The position numbers and the translations under genes are program-made. Source: an uncultured Mycoplasmatota bacterium (lineage in GTDB: Bacteria > Bacillota_I > Bacilli_A > RF39 > UBA660). Taken from it: DNA of 64,000 nt. Of the stretch, positions 3,632-36,680 are shown in pieces (the first letter of the stretch is position 1; every line of letters begins with the position of its first letter). The notes below the pieces were generated by a model that saw nothing but the letters and a program-made list of their open reading frames with translations, did no database searches and had not been told where the DNA came from. The DNA lies in NCBI GenBank assembly GCA_946498975.1, contig CAMMQC010000003.1, forward strand, positions 1 to 64,000, written 5' to 3'.

Positions 3632-4432
3632 TTATTTTAAAAACTTCTCATTAATCTTTTTAATCATATCATAATCATTCATTCTAAGTACTTTAATTTC
3701 TTTATCTTTAATATAAGTATCTACTCTTATTACATCATTATATCTATAATTATCTCCATCTATACTGATAAGAATATTTTTACTAACTACTTCTGGTCTT
3801 ATAGATATTATCTTATCAGAAGGTACTATTAAAGAATTAAGTAAACTTCTATAACTTTTAGAGTTTAATGGTGCGATAGGTGTAAGTTGTAGGGTATGAA
3901 AAGTATTATAGACGATAGAACCACCAAAATTAAGGTTATAAGCAGTTGAACCAAATGAAGTTGATACTAATAGTCCATCTCCTACATAGTTTTCTAATAA
4001 TTCATCATTTATTAGGACTCTAAGTTTAGCTGTATTAAGTTCTTGTTCTCTTAAAACTATCTCATTTAAAGTAAAGTGTTTAAAAGTACTATCTTTAGTT
4101 TCTACTTCTATTTCTCCTATCCCAATTTTATCACACTTTAACTCGCCTAAAGTTAGTTTCTTAATAAAGGTATCTATCTCATCAAAACTAATCTCTTGAG
4201 CAAAACCTAGTGTTCCTGTATTTATTCCAATATAATAACATTTACTATCGAAGTTACTCTCTTTAACCATCCTTAAAAAGGCTCCATCTCCACCTATAGC
4301 AATAGCAAGATCATAATTTTTGGTAACGATTTTAAAGTCGTTTTCTTTTAATAACAATATCAGCATTTCAGAGATTTTCTTTGATTTTAAATTATCGTTA
4401 ACAAATAATCTTATTCTATTTATCTTAATCAT
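3632..4432 (-). CDS. nadK: NAD kinase
   Basis: At 266 residues this has the usual length of Bacillus-type NAD kinase, which phosphorylates NAD to NADP in the cytoplasm. The diagnostic GGDG is at residues 47-50, followed by the NEIVLRE segment and the conserved block GDGLLVSTSFGSTAYN with the Ser/Thr-rich NAD pocket. It overlaps the Nudix regulator gene by 8 nt and is the last gene of the seven-gene prs-nadK operon, giving the chain PRPP supply, NaMN, NaAD, (NAD), NADP. It ends 5 bases from the convergent ylmH stop, without a clear terminator between them. Confidence 0.95.
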   Translation of the reverse strand: MIKINRIRLFVNDNLKSKKISEMLILLLKENDFKIVTKNYDLAIAIGGDGAFLRMVKESNFDSKCYYIGINTGTLGFAQEISFDEIDTFIKKLTLGELKCDKIGIGEIEVETKDSTFKHFTLNEIVLREQELNTAKLRVLINDELLENYVGDGLLVSTSFGSTAYNLNFGGSIVYNTFHTLQLTPIAPLNSKSYRSLLNSLIVPSDKIISIRPEVVSKNILISIDGDNYRYNDVIRVDTYIKDKEIKVLRMNDYDMIKKINEKFLK

Positions 4433-5258
4433 TTTTCTTCCTATATTTAAATAATACTGATGGTCTATGTCCTTCTCCAGTTCTCATTTTATCAGTTTTA
4501 ACTACTTTATCTTTAATAATTCTTCTAAAAGCAGGATCTAATAACTTCTTATTAAGTATTACTTCATAAACTTGTTGTAACTCTCCTAAAGTAAAATATT
4601 CAGGCATCATATTAAAGACTATATCAGTATAATTTAATTTATTTTTTAAACGCTCTAAACCTGCCAATACTACTAAATCATGATCAAACGCTAAAGCTTT
4701 TTTTCTCGCTTTAAAACTATATCTATCAGTAGTCTTTTCTCTTAAGACTTTTTTTATTGACAAATTAATAGTCTCTACTCCATTAGTTAAAGAAATATCT
4801 ACAATATCATTTTTTTCTTCTATTAGTATAGCATCAAACCAACAAGCATTAGGATTAATCATTTCTGTTAATCTATTCTTATCAACTAAAGCGATAAATG
4901 ATGTTGATACTACTCTTGTTCTTGGATCTCTATCTATAGCATCATAAGTATATAACTGTTCTAAATAGATATTAGAAAGATTAGTTTCTCTTTTTAAAAC
5001 CCTCTTAGCACATTCTTCTAAAGTTTCCGTATTAGGGTCTAAAAATCCTCCAGGTAGACACCACTTATCTTTAAAAGGATAATCATCTCTCTTTACTAAA
5101 AGAATACTCATCATCTTCTTACTATTTTTACGATAGTTACTTACTTCTTCACTAGATACACTAATTAAAAGAATATCAGCAGTCATTGATAACTGATCAA
5201 AGTCTTTAGCATTGTAATCTTTTAAAAACTCTTCTTCACTCTTGTAAACTTTTTCCAT
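4425..5258 (-). CDS. Nudix-domain protein with NrtR-like C-terminal winged helix (probable NAD-metabolism regulator)
   Basis: This 277-residue protein has an N-terminal Nudix fold (about 25-170) and a C-terminal region (about 185-277) with the shape and closing motifs of the NrtR winged helix, including FTLGELQQVYE, DPAFRRII and HRPSVLFKY. NrtR proteins repress NAD salvage genes and sense ADP-ribose or related nucleotides. The Nudix box (about 70-93) reads GGFLDPNTETLEECAKRVLKRETN. It carries one extra residue in the loop, and the usual REUxEExG is RVLKRETN, so the first catalytic Glu is Val and the Gly is Asn. Hydrolysis is therefore probably lost while ligand binding may persist. It sits between pncC and nadK, which supports the regulatory role. 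An ADP-ribose pyrophosphatase is the alternative. Confidence 0.8.
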   Translation of the reverse strand: MEKVYKSEEEFLKDYNAKDFDQLSMTADILLISVSSEEVSNYRKNSKKMMSILLVKRDDYPFKDKWCLPGGFLDPNTETLEECAKRVLKRETNLSNIYLEQLYTYDAIDRDPRTRVVSTSFIALVDKNRLTEMINPNACWFDAILIEEKNDIVDISLTNGVETINLSIKKVLREKTTDRYSFKARKKALAFDHDLVVLAGLERLKNKLNYTDIVFNMMPEYFTLGELQQVYEVILNKKLLDPAFRRIIKDKVVKTDKMRTGEGHRPSVLFKYRKKND

Positions 5259-5295
5259 ACTACACCTCTTTTTTATAAATTGATTATAACACGAA

Positions 5296-5769
5296 CTACT
5301 TAATAATATCTAGTAACATTGTTATAATCTTATCTATAATATGATCTTTATTTAAAGCTCTGCTCTCTTTATTAACAGTCATCTTTTCTTTATAAAATTT
5401 ATTATTATCTCTATCATAAATACAAATATAAACAGTATTATCATCACCACATGGATTATTAGGATCACTTCTGTTAAGTTTACCAGTTATTCCTATACCA
5501 TAATTACTATTGGCAAAACTACTAATCGCTTTACTCATCTCTATTGCAGTTTCCATACTATAAACAGTGTATTTATCAATAACTTCTTTAGGTACACCCA
5601 TCTTTACTTTATATTCATTAGAGTAAGTTACGGCACTAAATTTTAATATTTCACTAGCACCTTCACAATTAGTAATAACATTAACTACTCCACCACCAGT
5701 ACAAGACTCCATTGTCGCAATTGTTTTTTGTCCTAATTGTAAAATATGTATAATTTCTTTAAAGTTCAT
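5296..5769 (-). CDS. pncC: nicotinamide-nucleotide amidohydrolase (CinA C-terminal domain)
   Basis: This is a stand-alone CinA C-terminal domain of 157 residues. It has the family signature ESCTGG at residues 21-26 (usually AESCTGG) and the later blocks AVTYSNEYKVKMGV and GITGKLNRSDPNN. PncC enzymes deamidate nicotinamide mononucleotide to nicotinate mononucleotide, the substrate of NadD, which is encoded two genes upstream in the same operon. The gene is 10 nt downstream of the unrecognised 188-residue ORF and 37 nt upstream of the NrtR-like regulator. The final-third segment after GITG diverges from the typical PncC GPGG motif, so activity is inferred from family and context. Confidence 0.82.
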   Translation of the reverse strand: MNFKEIIHILQLGQKTIATMESCTGGGVVNVITNCEGASEILKFSAVTYSNEYKVKMGVPKEVIDKYTVYSMETAIEMSKAISSFANSNYGIGITGKLNRSDPNNPCGDDNTVYICIYDRDNNKFYKEKMTVNKESRALNKDHIIDKIITMLLDIIK

Positions 5770-5779
5770 TTTATCATCC

Positions 5780-6346
5780 TCATCTTTCTAATAAATATTT
5801 TTTTATATCTTTCTTATCTATTTGTAATTCATTATCTATATCAATAAATGGTACTTGCATTTTACCATCTATTATCTTTAAAAATTCATCTATAGCACAA
5901 TCTTTTCTATCATGAAATTCTCTAGGATAATGATTTATATCAGTATCAGGTATCTTTATGCCAATAACTTTATCAAGACCGATTTTATTTTTTATTTGAT
6001 ATTCATCTTCATATATTGAATAACGCTTATTAGAAGACAAATTAGATATATGCCGATAATACTCATAATCATCTTCCACATATTCTGTTTCTATCGCCTC
6101 AATTTCCTTAAATATAAAAGCATAAGAAGGAGAAATAAATCTCCTATAAGAACTTTTCCATATATAATTTTTATCTTTTTTTGATAAAGAAATATAATCT
6201 AATCCATTCCAAGCATTTGAAGTAATTGTATTATCACCTTGTAGACGTTTTGATAAAATAGCATTATTCTTTAGAATATTAGGCATTCTTTCAAAACGTA
6301 CCTGATGGTAAAACCAGTTAGGATTAATCTCTATTTTTCTTATCAT
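5780..6346 (-). CDS. unrecognised 188-residue protein in the NAD operon; possible ADP-ribosyltransferase-like fold
   Basis: I do not recognise this protein with certainty. It opens with a His/Arg strand and helix (FYHQVRFERMPNILKNNAILS, about 12-32). A strand ending DYISLS follows near 50, and after a Tyr/Glu-rich stretch there is an acidic block YEDEYQI leading to a strand KVIGIKIP near 125-133. That spacing (basic/His strand plus helix, Ser/Tyr strand, then Glu-containing strand) resembles the layout of small NAD-using ADP-ribosyltransferase-fold proteins such as DarT or KptA. This is a fold guess from motif order only. It lies between nadD and pncC, 10 nt before pncC, so it is co-transcribed with NAD genes. 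It could instead be an unrelated small enzyme. Confidence 0.6.
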   Translation of the reverse strand: MIRKIEINPNWFYHQVRFERMPNILKNNAILSKRLQGDNTITSNAWNGLDYISLSKKDKNYIWKSSYRRFISPSYAFIFKEIEAIETEYVEDDYEYYRHISNLSSNKRYSIYEDEYQIKNKIGLDKVIGIKIPDTDINHYPREFHDRKDCAIDEFLKIIDGKMQVPFIDIDNELQIDKKDIKKYLLER

Positions 6347-6377
6347 ATTGTATCAACTTACTTTCTTAAGTAATATT

Positions 6378-6962
6378 TTATTTACTATATAACTTATTTC
6401 TTGTTATATAATCTAAAACTTTATCATCTAAATAATCTTTCACTCTTTTATTATTATATATCATTTCTCTAATTTTAGTAGAAGATATTTCATTTTCTTC
6501 TATTTCCGTAACAATAATATTATCTTTATAGTCCTTATATTTTTCTAATAAAGGAGTTATATCAAAAGTATTTCTTTTAATAACCAAAAATTTATTATTA
6601 GATAATACATATATACCTCTTTCCCATTTATCTATATAACTTAAATTATCAGTACCACAAATAAAGTATATCTCATCATCTTTATATTTGTTTCTAAAGT
6701 AATTAAGAGTCTCATAAGTATAAACAACATGTTCTTTTAATTCATAATCACTAACTTCTAAATTATTATTATCACGACACATTAACTCTAACATCTCTAG
6801 TCTTACTTTATCACTTAAAAGATTATTTTTATACTTATATTTACTACCAGTTGGTACAAAGATAACTTTATCTACATAATGTTTTTTTATAAGTTCTATA
6901 GCAATTTTCTTATGCATTTTATGAGGAGGATTAAAACTACCTCCAAAGATACCTATTTTCAT
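6378..6962 (-). CDS. nadD: nicotinate-nucleotide adenylyltransferase
   Basis: This 194-residue nucleotidyltransferase transfers AMP from ATP to nicotinate mononucleotide. It shows GIFGGSFNPPHKMHKKIA at residues 4-21 (the GGSFNPxHxGH motif, here with His-Lys-Met-His) and, near the C-terminus, SSTKIRE (the ISSTxIR nucleotide-binding motif). The length matches NadD of Bacillus. It overlaps the radical SAM gene by 4 nt (ATGA), so translation is coupled. In many Firmicutes nadD is followed by yqeK; here yqeK lies about 15 kb away and nadD instead belongs to an NAD operon. Confidence 0.93.
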   Translation of the reverse strand: MKIGIFGGSFNPPHKMHKKIAIELIKKHYVDKVIFVPTGSKYKYKNNLLSDKVRLEMLELMCRDNNNLEVSDYELKEHVVYTYETLNYFRNKYKDDEIYFICGTDNLSYIDKWERGIYVLSNNKFLVIKRNTFDITPLLEKYKDYKDNIIVTEIEENEISSTKIREMIYNNKRVKDYLDDKVLDYITRNKLYSK

Positions 6963-7663
6963 AAATCATCACGATCCCAACTATAAGAAATTGTACCATC
7001 TACATGACATTTTAAAGACTGTTCAGCGTTTTTATTAACTAATTTATCATAACGCTTAATAATACAATTCCTATAAATTTGTCCTTCTATTTCATTAAAT
7101 AATATTATTCTTTTTGCTTCTAACTCATCTAAATAATCGACTTGTTGTCTTTTTTCTGTAAAATCATTACAAACAGTTAAAGTAGAAAACTTTAAAATAT
7201 ATTCATCTTTATATTTATCAATAAAACTATCAAGTAATTTTTTAGTATCAAGTTGCCCTTTAAAAATTAAAGTAGATAAAGTAATATCAGCTTTATAATC
7301 TTTTTTCATAGGTAACATTTCTTGATAATAATAACTTATATTAAAGGAATCTACATATTTATCTAATTTCTTAACAATATCTGGTTTTGTATAATTTGTA
7401 GTCAAAACAACATTAAATCCTGCTTCATGAACCATTTTTGCAATTAGACATATATCAGGATGTAGAGTTGGTTCTCCTCCTACCAAAAGAATATCTTTTA
7501 TCTTTTTTGTTTTAGCGACTGTTATAGCTCTTTTTACATTTTCTAAAGTAATAAATTCACATCTACCTCTATAAGAATCTATACAAAATGGGCATTTTCT
7601 ATTACATTCATGAGTAACTACTATTGACATATAATCACTAGTTTTAGTATCAATTTTAAACAT
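6959..7663 (-). CDS. radical SAM protein in the NAD operon
   Basis: A 234-residue radical SAM enzyme with the [4Fe-4S] cysteine motif C20-x3-C24-x2-C27 (CNRKCPFC) and a GGEPTLHPDI block near residue 65 that contacts SAM. The chain is short, with only the partial barrel and no clear C-terminal SPASM cysteines, although CHVDG near the end retains one Cys. I chose the ATG at 7663; a TTG two codons earlier is possible. It overlaps prs by 8 nt and nadD by 4 nt. Its substrate is unknown. Location among PRPP and NAD genes suggests a role on a nucleotide, or in anaerobic activation or repair, which is inference only. Confidence 0.85.
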   Translation of the reverse strand: MFKIDTKTSDYMSIVVTHECNRKCPFCIDSYRGRCEFITLENVKRAITVAKTKKIKDILLVGGEPTLHPDICLIAKMVHEAGFNVVLTTNYTKPDIVKKLDKYVDSFNISYYYQEMLPMKKDYKADITLSTLIFKGQLDTKKLLDSFIDKYKDEYILKFSTLTVCNDFTEKRQQVDYLDELEAKRIILFNEIEGQIYRNCIIKRYDKLVNKNAEQSLKCHVDGTISYSWDRDDL

Positions 7664-8735
7664 AATCAACTTTTTCCCTTCTTAATTTTAATATTTTTTC
7701 TTTACCGTTTAATAAAGGTGTTAGAGACTCTTTATTATGTAAAGCATTAATTATTTCGGCAATGTCTTTAGAACAATCTACAGTATGAAACCAAGGCTTA
7801 TCTTTAAAATCTTTTGGTATATAAGAAAGATTAGTAGTATAAAGTTTTTCAAAAGTATTATCTAAATATGCTTTGTCAAAAGCCTCAATTCCTTCTGTAA
7901 ATAAAGAGAATGTTGCAATAAAATATACTTTTCTAGCACCTTGTTCTTTTAACATTTTCCCTACTTCTAACATAGATGAACCGGATGCAATCATATCGTC
8001 TACTACTAAAACATCTTTATCTTTAACATCTTTTCCCATATAAGTATGTTCAATTATAGGATTTTTACCATTAACAACACGAGATAAGTCACGTCTTTTA
8101 TAGAAAACTCCTACATCACTATCTAGAAGTTCTGCATAGTACCTTGCTCGTTCCATCGCTCCCATATCTGGACTTATTACTAAAATATCTTCTAAATCTT
8201 CACCTCGCAACAAATCTTCTAAAATAGTATTAGTAGGATAAAAGTTTTCAAAAGGAAGATTAGGAATAGCATTTGAAACATTAGGATCATGGGCATCAAA
8301 AGTAATTATATGGTTAACTCCAAGACGTTCTAACTCTTGTAAAGCAAGAGCACAATCAAGTGATTCTCTCCCTTTTCTTTTATGCTGTCTTGCTTGATAT
8401 AATAAAGGCATTATTAAGGTTATTTTTTCTTGATAACCAGATAAAGCAAGAATTGTTCTTTTAATATCCCCGAAATGTTCATCTGGACCCATATGATGAG
8501 TAAAACCATGCATATTATAAGTAATATTGTAATTACCAACATCAGAGATAATATAAATATCTTTATCTCTAACAGTTTCTTCTATCTTTACTTTACCTTC
8601 TCCATTAGAAAACCTATTATTCTTAACATCAATCATATAATTAGACTGCTCTTTTCTAATCACCTTTAAATCCCTATTTACCTTTTCTCCCAACTCTTTA
8701 ATATTCTCTAAAACTATTAACTTTAAATTATTCAT
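7656..8735 (-). CDS. prs: ribose-phosphate pyrophosphokinase family protein
   Basis: This 359-residue protein belongs to the PRPP synthetase family, which makes PRPP from ribose 5-phosphate and ATP. Visible hallmarks are ARQHKRKGRESL (the RQDRK...RE catalytic loop), FDAHDPN for the Mg site, and the PRPP-binding loop VLVVDDMIASGSSM. It is about 40 residues longer than canonical Prs and lacks the usual DLHAxQIQGFF text, so it is a divergent paralogue and probably not the only Prs in the cell. It is the first gene of the NAD operon, with RBS AAGAGGT at 8741-8747 and a strong promoter just upstream. PRPP from it would feed nicotinate or nicotinamide phosphoribosyltransferase. Confidence 0.85.
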   Translation of the reverse strand: MNNLKLIVLENIKELGEKVNRDLKVIRKEQSNYMIDVKNNRFSNGEGKVKIEETVRDKDIYIISDVGNYNITYNMHGFTHHMGPDEHFGDIKRTILALSGYQEKITLIMPLLYQARQHKRKGRESLDCALALQELERLGVNHIITFDAHDPNVSNAIPNLPFENFYPTNTILEDLLRGEDLEDILVISPDMGAMERARYYAELLDSDVGVFYKRRDLSRVVNGKNPIIEHTYMGKDVKDKDVLVVDDMIASGSSMLEVGKMLKEQGARKVYFIATFSLFTEGIEAFDKAYLDNTFEKLYTTNLSYIPKDFKDKPWFHTVDCSKDIAEIINALHNKESLTPLLNGKEKILKLRREKVDYV

Positions 8736-22007: not shown

Positions 22008-23264
22008 TTATGCCATATTTATCTCTTTAGGTAAAGTAACTATAACTCTTGTTCCCTCTCCTTTTACTGAATTATACACAATAGTACCATTATGTTGTTC
22101 TATTATCTCTTTAGATAGACTTACCCCTAGTCCACTACCTTTCTTTTTAGTTGTAAAAAACATTTCACTAACACTATTTAGACTATCTTTATCCATACCT
22201 ACTCCATTATCTTCAATTATTATTTTCATAAAATTATTATCACTTTCTAAACTTATTTTTATTTTATTTTCTTTTTTACTACTATCTTTCGCTTCAATAG
22301 CATTTTTTAAAAGATTAATAAAGACTTGTTTTAATCTATTATAGTCTGCCTCTATATAAATATCTTCATCTGGTAAATTGAACTTTGACTTAATACCATT
22401 TTTCTTAAATAAATCTTTTAAATAGTCTTCTAAATCTTCTAATAACATAACTAAATCCATCTCTTCTTTTTCTATCTTTATCTTAGTATAATCCAAGAAG
22501 TCATCCATTAAAATTAAAGTTCTTGTTATTTCATCTTTAATAATAGGAATATATTTCCTTACTTTTTTCTTATCATTAACATCTATCATATCTAAGTAAC
22601 CTTTACAAACTGCGATAGGATTCTTTATTTCATGAGTCACTTTAAATAAAGAACGTCTTAACTCTTTTTCTTTTTCAATATTTTGTAAATCATTATGTAA
22701 CTCTACTATTGTTTCTCCTTTAGCGAATATAGATATGATTATATTAGTTACAAAGTAAAGAGTTATTATAATAGTAAAGATATAAAATAAGTTTGATAAA
22801 TAGGTCTTTTCTGGACTAATAAACCAGAATACAGCTAGAGATAGCATAAAACTCTTAATAATAATAAAATAGTTAACAACACTAATAGGCTTTAGTTTTC
22901 TTCTTACTAGTAGAGAATATACTATTAAATAACTACTATATTCTAAGGCTAGGAATAAAGGATTAATGCCTAAGAATAGAGTCTCATAAATAATTAATAT
23001 TAATGATATAAAGACTGCTAAAGACATTTTTCTCTTGTAATAACAGATAAGTAATGGAATATCAAAGAGAATAATAGGATAGTCATTGTAACAACAAGTT
23101 CCATATCTCAAGACAAAATATAATGATGAAATAATAGCGATTTCAAATCCTAAATCTTTCTCTTCTATTGATAAATTCTTTTTATATATTGTATATAGTA
23201 AATGTAATGCTAATGGACAAAGTAGTAAAATAATACTTTCAATTATAACTTCAATATACGACAT
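22008..23264 (-). CDS. membrane sensor histidine kinase, orphan
   Basis: A 418-residue histidine kinase. Five or six hydrophobic segments fill residues 1-190. A HisKA domain follows with the phospho-accepting His in VTHEIKNPIAVCKGYLDM (about 209), then a HATPase domain with N box (LLKNAIEAKDS, about 315), G1 (EDNGVGMDKDSL, about 350) and G2 (GSGLGVSLSKEI, about 378). No response regulator is adjacent, so it is an orphan. The layout resembles KinB-type sporulation kinases that feed the Spo0F/Spo0A phosphorelay. That role is plausible in this spore former but not shown. Confidence 0.88.
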   Translation of the reverse strand: MSYIEVIIESIILLLCPLALHLLYTIYKKNLSIEEKDLGFEIAIISSLYFVLRYGTCCYNDYPIILFDIPLLICYYKRKMSLAVFISLILIIYETLFLGINPLFLALEYSSYLIVYSLLVRRKLKPISVVNYFIIIKSFMLSLAVFWFISPEKTYLSNLFYIFTIIITLYFVTNIIISIFAKGETIVELHNDLQNIEKEKELRRSLFKVTHEIKNPIAVCKGYLDMIDVNDKKKVRKYIPIIKDEITRTLILMDDFLDYTKIKIEKEEMDLVMLLEDLEDYLKDLFKKNGIKSKFNLPDEDIYIEADYNRLKQVFINLLKNAIEAKDSSKKENKIKISLESDNNFMKIIIEDNGVGMDKDSLNSVSEMFFTTKKKGSGLGVSLSKEIIEQHNGTIVYNSVKGEGTRVIVTLPKEINMA

Positions 23265-23337
23265 ATTTCTCCCTCTTTCTAAAATAAGTATATGTCATAG
23301 TTTTGTAGAAATTTGTCGAAAAATGGAAAGAAAAAGA

Positions 23338-23361
23338 AAAAATAGAGAAAACTCTATTTAA
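23338..23361 (-). terminator. terminator of the repeat-protein gene
   Basis: The inverted repeat AAATAGAG / CTCTATTT with a 4-nt loop lies against the stop at 23354 and is followed by a T-rich tract on the minus strand. Confidence 0.65.
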
Positions 23362-25315
23362 ATTTTTTAACGAACGAATTGATTTCTTCAGGAGTGCTAT
23401 TTTCTAACTCACGCATAAAATTCATATATCCATCAGAATCAAAATGATTACTATATAAATCTATTATATTAGTATTTCCATCTGTTTTTTCGTCTAATAT
23501 CTTTTTAACTCTTACTTGATAATCTTCTTCCATTCTATCCATAGAATTTGTTATCGAACGTATTATTTCTATAATATCTTCTCTTGCTAAAATAGCTACA
23601 TTTGTTGCTACAACACTTCCATACTTTGCTTGATAAAATCCTATAGCATTTGTTATTAAGCTTATTATTTCTATAACATCTTCTCTTGCTAAAACATCTG
23701 CATTCATTGCTATATTATATCCACATGATGCTTGATATTCCCCTTTAGCATTTGTTATCAATCTTATTATTTCTTTAGCATCTTCTCTTGCTAAAACTGC
23801 TGAAGAAGTTGCTACCTTATATCCATATTCTGCTTGATTCCATCCTTTAGCATTTGTTATAAAACTTATTATTTCTTTGGCATCTTCTCTTGCTAAAACT
23901 GTTTCGTTCGTTGTTACAACACTTCCATACTTTGCTTGATACTTTCCTATAGCATTTGTTATTAAGCTTATTATTTCTTTGGCATCTTCTCTTGCTAAAA
24001 CTGCTGAAGAAGTTGCTACATCATTTCCATACACTGCTTGATAGGCTTCATTTGCATTTGTTATCAAGCGTATTATTTCTTTGGCATCTTCTCTTGCTAA
24101 AACTGTCACATTTGTTGCTACTTTGCTTCCATATTTTGCTTGAGTCCATCCTTTAGTATTTGTTATCAAACCTATTATTTCTTTGGCATCTTCTCCTGCT
24201 AAAACTGTCACATTTGTTGCTACTTTGCTTCCATATTCTGCTTGATGGTATTCTTTGGCATTTGTTATCAATCTTATTAATTCTTTGGCATCATCTCTTG
24301 TTAAAACTGCTTCATTCGTTGCTACTTTGCTTCCATATATTGCTTGATAATCTTCTATAGCATTTGTTATCAATCTTATTATTTCTTTAGCATCTTCTCT
24401 TGCTAAAACTTTTTCATCTCTTGCTACATAACTTCCACATTCTGCTTGATAGCCTCCTTTAGTATTTGTTATCAAACCTATTATTTCTTTGGCATCTTCT
24501 CTTGCTAAAACTGCTGAAGAAGTTGCTACATCATTTCCATCCATTGTTTGAAAATCTCCTATAGCATTTGTTATCAAGCTTATTATTTCTTTGGCATCTT
24601 CCCTTGCTAAAACTGCTGAAGAAGTTGCTACCTTATATCCATATTTTGCTTGATAGTATCCTTTGACATTTGTTATCAAGCTTATTATTTCTTTGGCATC
24701 TTCTCTTGCTAAAACTGTCACATTTGTTGCTACTTTGCTTCCAAATTCTGCTTGATCCCATCCTTTAGCATTTGTTATCAAACTTATTATTTCTTTGGCA
24801 TCTTCTCTTGCTAAAACTGCTGAAGAAGTTGCTACCTTATATCCATATTCTGCTTGATTCCATCCTTTAGCATTTGTTATCAAACGTATTATTTCTTTAA
24901 CATCTTCTCTTGCTAAAACTGCTGAAGAAGTTGCTACCTTATATCCATATTCTGCTTGATTCCATCCTTTAGCATTTTTTATCAAACTTATTATTTCTTT
25001 GGCAGCTTCTCTTGCTAAAACTGCTGAAGAAGTTGCTACTTTTCTTATATACTCTACTTGATAATCTTCACTAAAACTAATACTAATACTAGAAATATAG
25101 TTAATGATATCTTTCTTAAATCTGTTGATCTCACTATTAAAATCTTCATTTGATAACAAATAAATTAAAGCTAGTTTGTTATAATCATCACTTGCTTCTA
25201 TTATCTTATCAATAAAGGTAGAATCTTGACTCAATAAAATTTCAAAATTAACTTCATCAAGATTAATTTTTCTTTCTTCTACAAATTCTTTAATTATTTT
25301 TAATAATTCCAGCAT
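23354..25315 (-). CDS. protein of fifteen 34-residue helical tandem repeats
   Basis: This 653-residue protein has a 80-residue helical N-terminus, then about fifteen consecutive 34-residue repeats (residues about 85-600) and a short acidic C-terminal domain ending SFVKKFK. The repeat core is VATSSAVLAREDAKEIISLITN followed by a variable loop and QAEYG. The core is nearly invariant; variation clusters at the four residues before QA, the pair after QA, the pair before VAT and the triplet after VAT. Each unit would form two helices, so the array should be an alpha-solenoid. I do not recognise a named family. There is no signal peptide or membrane helix, so it is probably cytoplasmic. It stands alone as a single transcript with its own terminator. 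Confidence 0.85.
   Translation of the reverse strand: MLELLKIIKEFVEERKINLDEVNFEILLSQDSTFIDKIIEASDDYNKLALIYLLSNEDFNSEINRFKKDIINYISSISISFSEDYQVEYIRKVATSSAVLAREAAKEIISLIKNAKGWNQAEYGYKVATSSAVLAREDVKEIIRLITNAKGWNQAEYGYKVATSSAVLAREDAKEIISLITNAKGWDQAEFGSKVATNVTVLAREDAKEIISLITNVKGYYQAKYGYKVATSSAVLAREDAKEIISLITNAIGDFQTMDGNDVATSSAVLAREDAKEIIGLITNTKGGYQAECGSYVARDEKVLAREDAKEIIRLITNAIEDYQAIYGSKVATNEAVLTRDDAKELIRLITNAKEYHQAEYGSKVATNVTVLAGEDAKEIIGLITNTKGWTQAKYGSKVATNVTVLAREDAKEIIRLITNANEAYQAVYGNDVATSSAVLAREDAKEIISLITNAIGKYQAKYGSVVTTNETVLAREDAKEIISFITNAKGWNQAEYGYKVATSSAVLAREDAKEIIRLITNAKGEYQASCGYNIAMNADVLAREDVIEIISLITNAIGFYQAKYGSVVATNVAILAREDIIEIIRSITNSMDRMEEDYQVRVKKILDEKTDGNTNIIDLYSNHFDSDGYMNFMRELENSTPEEINSFVKKFK
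23530..25060 (-). repeat. 102-bp tandem coding repeats, about 15 copies
   Basis: The repeat region of the gene at 23354-25315 is built from 102-bp units that are highly alike at the DNA level, for example the recurring text GCTAAAACTGCTGAAGAAG on the plus strand. Such similarity means recent expansion or homogenisation by recombination. Copy number is likely to vary between strains. Confidence 0.85.
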
Positions 25316-25371
25316 GATTAGTCCTCCCTCTTTTGATTATCTATTATAAGGCAAAAAATTTAAATGTAAAG

Positions 25372-25399
25372 AAAAAAAATAGAGCTTAGCCCTATTTTA
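25372..25399 (-). terminator. terminator of the EIIB-like gene
   Basis: The minus strand reads AAAATAGGGC, a three-base loop, then GCTCTATTTT and a T-run, overlapping the stop at 25392. Confidence 0.65.
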
Positions 25400-25712
25400 G
25401 TTCATCAATATATTTTTTTAATTGTTTAGATTCAGGTCCTAAGATAATCTTTAATTGATTATTAATCTCAACTATACCTTTAGCACCTAATTTCTGGATT
25501 GATTCTTTATCAACTTTAGAAGTATCTTTTAGTGTTACGATAAACCTAGATAGTTTAGATTCTGTACTGATAATATTATCTTTTCCACCAAGATACTCTA
25601 CTAGTTTATTTAAATCAATATTAGCATCTTTCTTATTAGCTTTTAGTACTGCTAGTAATATTATTAATATTACGGCAATAATTATAATATACTGAATATC
25701 TAATAAATTCAT
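25392..25712 (-). CDS. membrane-anchored PTS IIB-like domain lacking the catalytic cysteine
   Basis: This 106-residue protein has an N-terminal transmembrane helix (about 5-25) and a soluble domain that follows the glucose-type EIIB fold, with LVEYLGGKDNIISTESKLSRFIVTLKD, then LGAKGIVEI and IILGPESKQL. In active EIIB proteins the phosphorylated Cys sits in DACxTRLR; here the matching text is ESKLSRF, so Lys replaces Cys and phosphotransfer through it is impossible. It may be a sensory or structural derivative. The start at 25712 has AGGTGAT upstream. It is not near other PTS genes. Confidence 0.75.
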   Translation of the reverse strand: MNLLDIQYIIIIAVILIILLAVLKANKKDANIDLNKLVEYLGGKDNIISTESKLSRFIVTLKDTSKVDKESIQKLGAKGIVEINNQLKIILGPESKQLKKYIDELK

Positions 25713-25804
25713 CTTTATATCACCTATTAACAATTATACTCTATTAGTAAAAAAAATAAAAGTGGAAATTATCAAGAATAGTATCATAAACTAATAATAG
25801 AAGT

Positions 25805-25880: not shown

Positions 25881-26288
25881 GTGAAAGAAAAGAAAGATAC
25901 TTGTTGTTTAGGTAAATTATTAAAGGTTATTGATATATTACAAAGAAATGCCGGAGGTAGTGATTGTTTTGATGAGTCTTGTACTAGACCTTATTTAGGA
26001 AGTAGTCCTAATATTATTTGTTTTAATACAAGACCAGTTACTTTCTATACTAGATTTGGTAATATCTTCAGTACTACTTATACAATAGATGGTAATACTA
26101 ATACTTCATCTGTTTTTAGAGTGGAGTCTGTTGATGATTGCTGTGTTAAATGTCGTGTATTAAGACCTAATCCTGATACTAGTGATTCTAATAGAACATA
26201 CCTATCTACAAATGATTTTATAACTATTAATTTAGATTGTATCTGTGTTGTTAGTTGTTTGGATGATATTATTATTGATAATTTATAA
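25881..26288 (+). CDS. spore coat protein, CotY/CotZ family (copy 1)
   Basis: This 135-residue Cys-rich protein resembles CotY/CotZ of the Bacillus coat crust. The conserved scheme is visible: PYLG...ICFNTRPVTFYTRFGN, SSVFRVESVDDCCVKCRVLRPNPD, and the closing FITINLDCICVVSCLDD. About twelve Cys are present, and the family crosslinks into hexagonal two-dimensional layers. It starts with GTG at 25881, with AGAGGTGG 9 nt upstream. A second copy follows after 14 nt, so they form one operon driven by the sigma-K-like promoter. Confidence 0.85.
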   Translation: MKEKKDTCCLGKLLKVIDILQRNAGGSDCFDESCTRPYLGSSPNIICFNTRPVTFYTRFGNIFSTTYTIDGNTNTSSVFRVESVDDCCVKCRVLRPNPDTSDSNRTYLSTNDFITINLDCICVVSCLDDIIIDNL

Positions 26289-26302
26289 AAGGAGGATAAT
26301 TT

Positions 26303-26701
26303 ATGTGTGATGATAAAAGTTGCTTAACTTCCATCTTAGAGACTATTCTTTGCTTACAAAATTCTAAAGATGATTCTTGCGAAGTTCTAGGATGTGATAA
26401 GCCTTATTTAGGTCCTACTCCTAGTTTAGTGTGCTATAACACAAGACCAATAAATTTATATAACTGTACTACAGGTTGTCGTTGGAGTTTTCCTTATACT
26501 CTTGATTCAGTTAATGGAACTTCTTCTATCTTTAGACTAGAAAATTTAGAGGGTAATTGTTGTACTTGTAGAGTGTTAGCACAAAATCCTGATACTAGTA
26601 GTAGTGAGCCTTATGTTTTAACTAGTACATTCTTTACTATTAATTTAGATTGTGTTTCTGCTATTAAATGTTTACCTGATGTCTTAGTTAGTGGTGTATA
26701 A
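26303..26701 (+). CDS. spore coat protein, CotY/CotZ family (copy 2)
   Basis: A 132-residue paralogue of the preceding gene: PYLGPTPSLVCYNTRPINLY, SSIFRLENLEGNCCTCRVLAQNPD and FFTINLDCVSAIKCLPD align with it throughout. It has about eleven Cys. The start is an ATG with AGGAGG 8 nt upstream. The two paralogues probably co-assemble in the outer spore layers, as CotY and CotZ do in Bacillus; which one is which cannot be told. Confidence 0.85.
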   Translation: MCDDKSCLTSILETILCLQNSKDDSCEVLGCDKPYLGPTPSLVCYNTRPINLYNCTTGCRWSFPYTLDSVNGTSSIFRLENLEGNCCTCRVLAQNPDTSSSEPYVLTSTFFTINLDCVSAIKCLPDVLVSGV

Positions 26702-31726: not shown

Positions 31727-31744
31727 TATTAGGTGGTGATGATA

Positions 31745-32389
31745 ATGGAACATTTTTGTCATAATGGCTGTTTTATTTTAGGACCTACTGGTCCAACTGG
31801 TCCTATGGGAATATCTGGTGCGACAGGTCCTACTGGGCCAACGGGTGCAAGTGGTGTTACTGGTCCTACGGGTGCAACTGGTATAACAGGACCAACTGGA
31901 CCTACAGGCGCTGCTGGTGTTACTGGTCCTACTGGTGAAACAGGGCCTACAGGGATAATGGGTCCTACCGGGCCTACTGGTCCTGAGCTAGATAATAATT
32001 ATGCTCTAGTTGTAAATCAAGCAACGGATATTAGTTCTGGTAATGTAATTCCATTAGCTTTACAATTTAGTGGAGGAACACCTAATATTACTGTAAGTAA
32101 TGCTACTATTACTTTACCAAGTCCTGGTACTTATTATGTTTCTTTTAGTTTAACAGGAAGATTTGGTGTTAATCAAAATGGATCTATAATTCCTATTATT
32201 AATGGAATACCTCAAGATCGTTTAGCACCTACTAATAATACTAATAGCGTTAATAGTGATATTACAATACAAGATGGAACATTAATTCAAGCGTCTACTA
32301 ATAGTACTGTTCAATTTTTATATACCGGTAGTACTGCTGTTTCTAGAGCAAACTTTTTTGTTTCAGTTTTTAAAGTATCAAATGTTTAA
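31745..32389 (+). CDS. collagen-like triple-helix protein, probable exosporium or surface filament
   Basis: A 214-residue protein with a short N-terminus ([12 protein letters not shown], two Cys), about 22 Gly-X-Y triplets dominated by GPT and GAT (residues about 14-82), and a C-terminal globular domain of about 130 residues. The globular part ([35 protein letters not shown] and a closing [12 protein letters not shown]) has the TNF/C1q-like strand pattern of BclA-type spore filaments. The ATG at 31745 has AGGTGGTGAT upstream; earlier GTG and ATG codons overlap that RBS. No signal peptide is present, as in spore-surface proteins made in the mother cell. The promoter also fits late sporulation. 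Confidence 0.85.
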
Positions 32390-36577: not shown

Positions 36578-36680
36578 GAAAACCGGACTTTTTTTGGAGA
36601 AAACCGGACTTTTTTTTAAGAAAACCGGACTTTTTTTCAAGAAAACCGGACTTTTTTTCAAGAAAACCGGACTTTTTTAT
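36578..36680 (+). repeat. five 21-bp tandem repeats around a CCGG core
   Basis: Five units start at 36578, 36599, 36620, 36641 and 36662, each reading close to GAAAACCGGACTTTTTTTCAA. The exact 21-bp period is two helical turns, so every CCGG lies on one face of the helix. The array sits between the mreC stop (36677) and the promoter region of the AlbA_2 gene, and the first units are slightly different from the last three. Confidence 0.9.

What the first reader, a model, noticed from the sequence alone, without database searches (positions are those of the whole stretch)
23354..25315. Fifteen 34-residue repeats with patterned hypervariability
The repeat is almost constant in its helical core but varies at four small groups of positions in each unit. 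That is the pattern of a solenoid whose exposed face has been selected to bind different ligands. Near-identical 102-bp DNA units imply active expansion or gene conversion. Repeat length equals that of TPR and TALE-like arrays, but the text fits neither family. It is the strongest candidate for an undescribed binding scaffold in the window.
Basis: partly seen in the sequence, partly recalled or inferred. Interest (0 to 1): 0.68.

Follow-up and report, generated by a model that had tools for sequence, protein, structure and literature searches.

The report
Fast-changing helical-repeat recognition protein cassette
A gut bacterium carries a gene for a spring-like helical-repeat protein whose scaffold stays fixed while its exposed face and even the whole gene change quickly between close relatives, as expected of a protein that must keep recognising a moving target; it belongs to a family I found in none of the protein family libraries searched.

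Summary
ORF 23354-25315 (-), 653 aa, has an ~85-aa N-cap, fifteen ungapped 34-aa (102-bp) repeats and a 58-aa C-cap. The framework is constant; variation sits at positions 3, 6-7, 11-13, 25 and 30-34.

It has no credible match in Pfam, NCBIfam, PHROGs, PADLOC or PDB sequences. Relatives occur only in one family of small-genome gut Bacilli (31 of 386 genomes, 22 of 150 genera), none elsewhere in the phylum sample. Ten sub-families with different sequences vary at the same positions. Models give three helices per unit, with the variable face opposite the hydrophobic face. The best model's nearest solved structures are TAL-effector arrays, by local fold only; there is no sequence relation, and the protein is acidic.

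New here: the gene is a promoter-gene-terminator cassette at a conserved site, empty in 25 congeners and occupied in 5. Between sister species, flanking genes are 98% identical while the cassette allele is 37% identical.

Best reading: a lineage-specific hypervariable alpha-solenoid that recognises a fast-evolving partner inside the cell, with turnover like arms-race receptors. Ligand, and protein versus nucleic acid, are unproven. Strain-level copy number could not be tested.

The parts
23354..25315 (-). Repeat-protein gene, 653 aa, no signal peptide seen (by eye), pI 4.97, net charge about -20
25061..25315 (-). N-cap, residues 1-85; 37-44% identical to the N-caps of congeneric relatives
23531..25060 (-). 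Fifteen 34-aa (102-bp) repeats, residues 86-595
23354..23530 (-). C-cap, residues 596-653, ending in a short lysine-rich tail whose pattern recurs across the family
25343..25370 (-). Own promoter-like site TTTACA-16-TATAAT (11 of 12 matches); similar hexamers precede the other occupied alleles (read by eye)
25322..25329 (-). Ribosome-binding site AGGGAGGA, 6 bp before ATG
25376..25398 (-). Terminator-like hairpin after the upstream gene; left direct-repeat edge of the cassette
23337..23356 (-). Terminator-like hairpin overlapping the stop codon; right edge. This exact hairpin pattern occurs only 3 times in the genome assembly
25392..25733 (-). Left flank: small membrane-anchored EIIB-like protein; 79-100% identical across 32 of 35 genomes of the genus
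22008..23264 (-). Right flank: sensor histidine kinase; conserved in the genus; directly adjacent to the EIIB-like gene where the cassette is absent

Best explanation
The gene encodes a cytosolic alpha-solenoid recognition protein. SHOWN by sequence or computation: an N-cap, an array of 34-aa units with a constant framework and patterned variable sites, and a C-cap with a recurring lysine-rich tail; variable sites shared by ten sub-families; a self-contained promoter-gene-terminator cassette at a conserved intergenic site that is empty, or filled with a very different allele, in close relatives. PREDICTED: three helices per unit stack into a superhelix, with the variable stripe of helix A (33/34, 3, 6/7, 10), the A-B turn (11-13) and position 25 of helix C exposed. 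INFERRED: this face binds a polymorphic partner inside the cell, most likely a protein (a phage or mobile-element product, or a variable self-component); the fixed caps join it to something common; unequal exchange and conversion among units, plus replacement or loss of the whole cassette by recombination between its flanking terminator repeats, renew the specificity. It works like the hypervariable repeat domain of an arms-race receptor, without the fused effector.
For: Conserved framework with clustered variability. Variable positions coincide in ten sub-families of different sequence: mean rank correlation 0.40, maximum 0.18 in 5000 circular shifts. Variable side of helix A opposite the hydrophobic side. 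Solenoid models: window pLDDT 69; relative L096 pLDDT 86, pTM 0.77, repeats mostly 90-97. Silent sites homogenised and nonsynonymous excess in this array. Cassette site: 5 occupied, 25 empty; 5 changes on the kinase tree, no clustering. G000 versus G022: kinase 98.3% aa, dS 0.12; N-cap 37% aa, dS about 1.0. Flanking hairpin otherwise nearly absent from the genome. The G010 allele is broken by an early stop or frameshift. Stand-alone or tandem copies at many different housekeeping sites in other genera. Acidic overall.
Against: No ligand or experiment. No effector domain, no consistent partner gene, no defence-library match. The nonsynonymous excess is significant only in this array, and repeat exchange violates the assumptions of such tests. 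Exposed positions of any repeat protein drift more than buried ones, so patterned variability alone does not prove selection. The kinase tree is one gene. The window model is only moderately confident, with the N-cap below 50, and one of the five L096 models far outscored the rest.
Confidence: 0.5

Rival explanations
1. A TAL-like modular nucleic-acid-binding array: each 34-aa unit reads one base or base pair through residues in the turn after helix A (11-13) and the adjoining stripe.
For: Same unit length; hypervariable residues in the turn after the first helix; for the better model (L096) 48 of the top 50 PDB fold matches are TAL-effector arrays, E from 6e-4.
Against: TM-scores only about 0.2, so superhelix geometry differs. 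The window model itself matched HEAT/ARM/PUF-type solenoids, none below 1e-3. No TAL chain or family matches by sequence. Protein acidic, N-cap pI 4.3. At least nine variable positions per unit rather than two.
Confidence: 0.12
2. A solenoid with a general housekeeping or structural role in which exposed residues drift neutrally; near-identity of units reflects only recent slippage, and presence/absence reflects loss of a dispensable gene.
For: Nonsynonymous to synonymous ratio near 1 in most arrays; degenerate alleles (G010, G022); patchy distribution.
Against: Excess nonsynonymous change in this array (p = 0.016); caps and reading frames kept in dozens of diverged members; variable positions agree across sub-families; the G022 allele is far too divergent to be a drifted copy at flank dS 0.12.
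Confidence: 0.22
3. A host- or surface-directed binding protein (adhesin or exported effector) varying to follow host ligands or immunity.
For: Gut-associated lineage; antigen-like variability and gene replacement.
Against: No signal peptide, transmembrane segment or anchor by eye in the window protein (N-terminus charged and helical); no secretion genes recognised next to it or its relatives.
Confidence: 0.1

Closest known systems
High-internal-conservation WD/ANK/TPR repeat domains of fungal NOD-like receptors (PMC4986451)
   Same: Near-identical tandem units, homogenisation of units, a few hypervariable codons per unit on the binding face, length differences, very different alleles in close relatives.
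   Different: No NOD or effector domain here, different fold and repeat sequence, bacterial, and population-level selection not yet shown.
TAL-effector and TAL-like repeats (PMC11514114, section on TAL)
   Same: 34-residue near-identical alpha-helical repeats; variable residues in the turn after the first helix; local fold match.
   Different: No sequence relation found, three helices rather than two per unit, many variable positions rather than two, acidic, different superhelix (TM about 0.2).
Armadillo / PUF / HEAT alpha-solenoids
   Same: Helical solenoid; armadillo units also have three helices (PMC11514114); weak fold matches for the window model.
   Different: 34-aa unit against 42 for armadillo; no Pfam match; near-identical units.
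Tetratricopeptide repeats
   Same: 34-aa period and variable residues on one helical face.
   Different: No TPR model matches and three helices per unit are predicted.

Membership tests
TPR | Match to a curated TPR sequence model | tested here: not met
   no TPR model listed
TPR | Two antiparallel helices per 34-aa unit | tested here: not met
   predicted helices of 11, 4 and 9 residues per unit
TAL effector / TAL-like | Sequence similarity to TAL repeats | tested here: not met
   No TAL family in Pfam scans; no TAL chain in PDB sequence searches
TAL effector / TAL-like | 34-aa repeats, two-helix bundle, right-handed superhelix | tested here: inconclusive
   Local fold match to 48 of the top 50 hits but TM about 0.2; three helices per unit predicted
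TAL effector / TAL-like | Variability confined to residues 12-13 that read DNA bases | tested here: not met
   at least nine variable positions
TAL effector / TAL-like | Sequence-specific DNA binding | not testable with these tools
   needs SELEX or gel shift
Armadillo/PUF/HEAT | Match to a curated family model | tested here: not met
Armadillo/PUF/HEAT | Same fold in solved structures | tested here: inconclusive
   weak matches only, none below 1e-3, TM about 0.2
NOD-like receptor / STAND sensors | NTPase or effector domain fused to the repeats | tested here: not met
   none in the window protein or in ten relatives
NOD-like receptor / STAND sensors | Hypervariable near-identical repeats under diversifying selection | tested here: inconclusive
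   pattern met; selection significant in one array only
Known anti-phage defence system | Match to a defence protein model | tested here: not met
   only weak matches (best E 0.008)
Diversity-generating retroelement target | A template repeat elsewhere in the genome, similar to the variable region | tested here: not met
   no second similar DNA in the assembled genome, although RT genes exist

The most novel reading that the evidence does not exclude
A family of hypervariable 34-aa-repeat proteins, local fold neighbours of TAL arrays, carried by gut Bacilli as exchangeable promoter-gene-terminator cassettes: either a code-like, modular nucleic-acid-reading scaffold unrelated to the known TALs, or a bacterial repertoire of stand-alone recognition receptors without effector domains.
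Probability: 0.15. Interest if true: 0.9.

Novelty: new variant of a known kind. Interest (0 to 1): 0.62.

Why it matters
It adds a repeat family absent from the curated libraries searched, confined to one large family of uncultured gut Bacilli, that combines a designable-looking constant framework with natural variation at defined exposed positions, and an allele-swapping cassette site. If the ligands are phage or mobile-element proteins, it is a new recognition repertoire in bacteria; if nucleic acids, a new modular reader. Either way the natural variants form a ready library for a binding scaffold.

Tried and rejected
Weak Pfam, NCBIfam, PHROGs and PADLOC matches (for example phage fibre, L22e, JetB) cover fragments of one or a few repeats at low scores; rejected as repeat-composition artefacts. 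Hits of the first profile outside the family (PolC-like and UvrD-like proteins in G051, G122, G218, G219) are false positives on inspection. No relatives in phage, plasmid or IMG/VR records. DGR-driven diversification: RT genes exist but no template. Generic terminator as explanation of the flanking repeats: the exact hairpin occurs only three times in the genome. PDB match to an engineered protein (4hqd, E 7e-4) rejected: single weak hit, not reproduced by the profile search. A TALE-like repeat screen (PMC5472282) does not mention Firmicutes, Clostridia or Tenericutes in its main text. Literature searches found no description of this family. Strain-level copy number: one genome per species held, and no congener carries a close allele.

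Full report
Observation. The minus-strand ORF 23354-25315 (653 aa) contains fifteen ungapped 34-aa repeats. Units are 69-96% identical in DNA. Positions 14-24 and 26-29 are nearly constant, and variability is concentrated at 3(4), 6-7, 11-13, 25 and 30-34. At conserved residues the silent codon is the same in 97% of units, so the array was expanded recently or is homogenised. Changes in this array favour nonsynonymous ones (81 against 13; per-site ratio 1.9, binomial p = 0.016). Nine comparable arrays give 0.8-1.6 with no significance. Exchange between units makes such tests approximate, so I treat selection as suggested, not shown.

Family. The protein has no credible match in Pfam, NCBIfam, PHROGs, PADLOC or PDB sequences, nor in phage, plasmid or viral collections. 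A three-unit profile finds relatives in 31 of 386 sampled genomes of the same taxonomic family, 22 of 150 genera, and in none of the other genomes of a 392-genome phylum sample. Named records are uncultured Bacilli / Tenericutes metagenome bins. Some genomes carry several copies, often in tandem, at many different housekeeping sites (next to leuS, frr, infC, efp, mutL, mutS, topA, dnaK and others), with no constant partner (gene identities by eye). Members share a helical N-cap, and most share a short lysine-rich C-terminal tail of the type T-x-V-K-V/Y-K.

Same variable positions everywhere. Ten sub-families with clearly different repeat sequences, set in one 34-position register, vary at the same places (highest mean entropy at 7, 3, 33, 13, 12, 25). 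Mean rank correlation is 0.40; 5000 circular shifts reached at most 0.18. The register was set by hand, which is a limitation.

Structure. The window model has mean pLDDT 69 with repeats mostly at 65-88. A relative from a rabbit-labelled bin (L096) models better: pLDDT 86, pTM 0.77, repeats mostly 90-97. Both give helix A (33 to 9), short helix B (12-15) and helix C (20-28) per unit. By helical-wheel moments the variable side of helix A lies 153-158 degrees from the hydrophobic side (permutation p = 0.015 in the window array, below 0.001 for the family mean). PDB fold matches of the window model are HEAT/ARM/PUF-type solenoids, none below 1e-3. Those of L096 are TAL-effector arrays in 48 of the top 50 (E from 6e-4) but with TM about 0.2. 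I read this as local similarity of a 34-aa helical unit, not as membership: sequence tests for TAL fail, at least nine positions vary rather than two, and the protein is acidic.

Cassette site. The gene lies between a small EIIB-like gene and a sensor kinase gene. In 25 congeners these two are adjacent with a gap of 88-146 bp. In five genomes (G000, G003, G010, G013, G022; G013 across two contig ends) the gap holds a member of this family. Two are split over contigs and three lack the locus. G030 has an empty site and a copy elsewhere. On the kinase tree the occupied state needs five changes and is not clustered. G022 and G000 differ by dS 0.12 in the kinase but only 37% of N-cap residues match, dS about 1.0, while G018 and G020, equally close, are empty. 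So alleles are replaced, gained or lost on a very short time scale. The cassette has its own promoter-like site and is bracketed by two similar hairpin terminators, one after the upstream gene and one overlapping its own stop codon. The exact hairpin pattern occurs only three times in the genome. Recombination between these repeats would give exactly the empty site; this is inferred.

Mechanism. Shown: architecture, shared variable positions, homogenised units, allele turnover. Predicted: exposed variable face of a three-helix solenoid. Inferred: intracellular recognition of a polymorphic ligand, probably a protein; caps as common interaction elements. The closest functional analogue is the hypervariable repeat domain of fungal NOD-like receptors (PMC4986451), which combines near-identical units, homogenisation, a few hypervariable codons on the binding face and allelic diversity. 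The window protein lacks any recognised effector domain, so if it signals it must do so through a partner.

Limits. One draft genome per species; array length may be affected by assembly; no strain comparison; no ligand; one gene tree; N-cap poorly modelled in the window protein.

Noticed in passing
G000:C9:31791-32504 (L159) and G000:C33:247-900 (L160): Two reverse-transcriptase genes of 317-368 aa, each preceded by a ~130-aa helical ORF resembling an Avd accessory protein; possible diversity-generating retroelements, unrelated by sequence to the array. A third RT (L158) looks like a group II intron.
   Followed up: partly
window 36578-36678: 4.8 copies of a 21-bp unit (GAAAACCGGACTTTTTTTCAA, 96% matches) in an intergenic gap.
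   Followed up: no
window 25881-26701 and 31733-32389: Two CotZ-like spore-coat genes and a collagen-like repeat ORF, suggesting a spore former with a 1.5-Mb genome.
   Followed up: no
L151 (G017:C12), 4362-8479: Two large, strongly diverged tandem family members (613 and 769 aa) upstream of rpsO/pnp and beside a large AAA+-type ATPase gene, in a genome that lacks the EIIB-kinase site.
   Followed up: partly
L152 (G030:C9 end) and L012 (G030:C12 start): The family member of G030 lies at another chromosomal place, split over two contig ends, while its EIIB-kinase site is empty: the cassette can occupy other sites.
   Followed up: partly
C-termini of most family members: Recurring tail T-x-V-K-V/Y-K preceded by a short acidic loop; may be a docking tag, function unknown.
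   Followed up: partly
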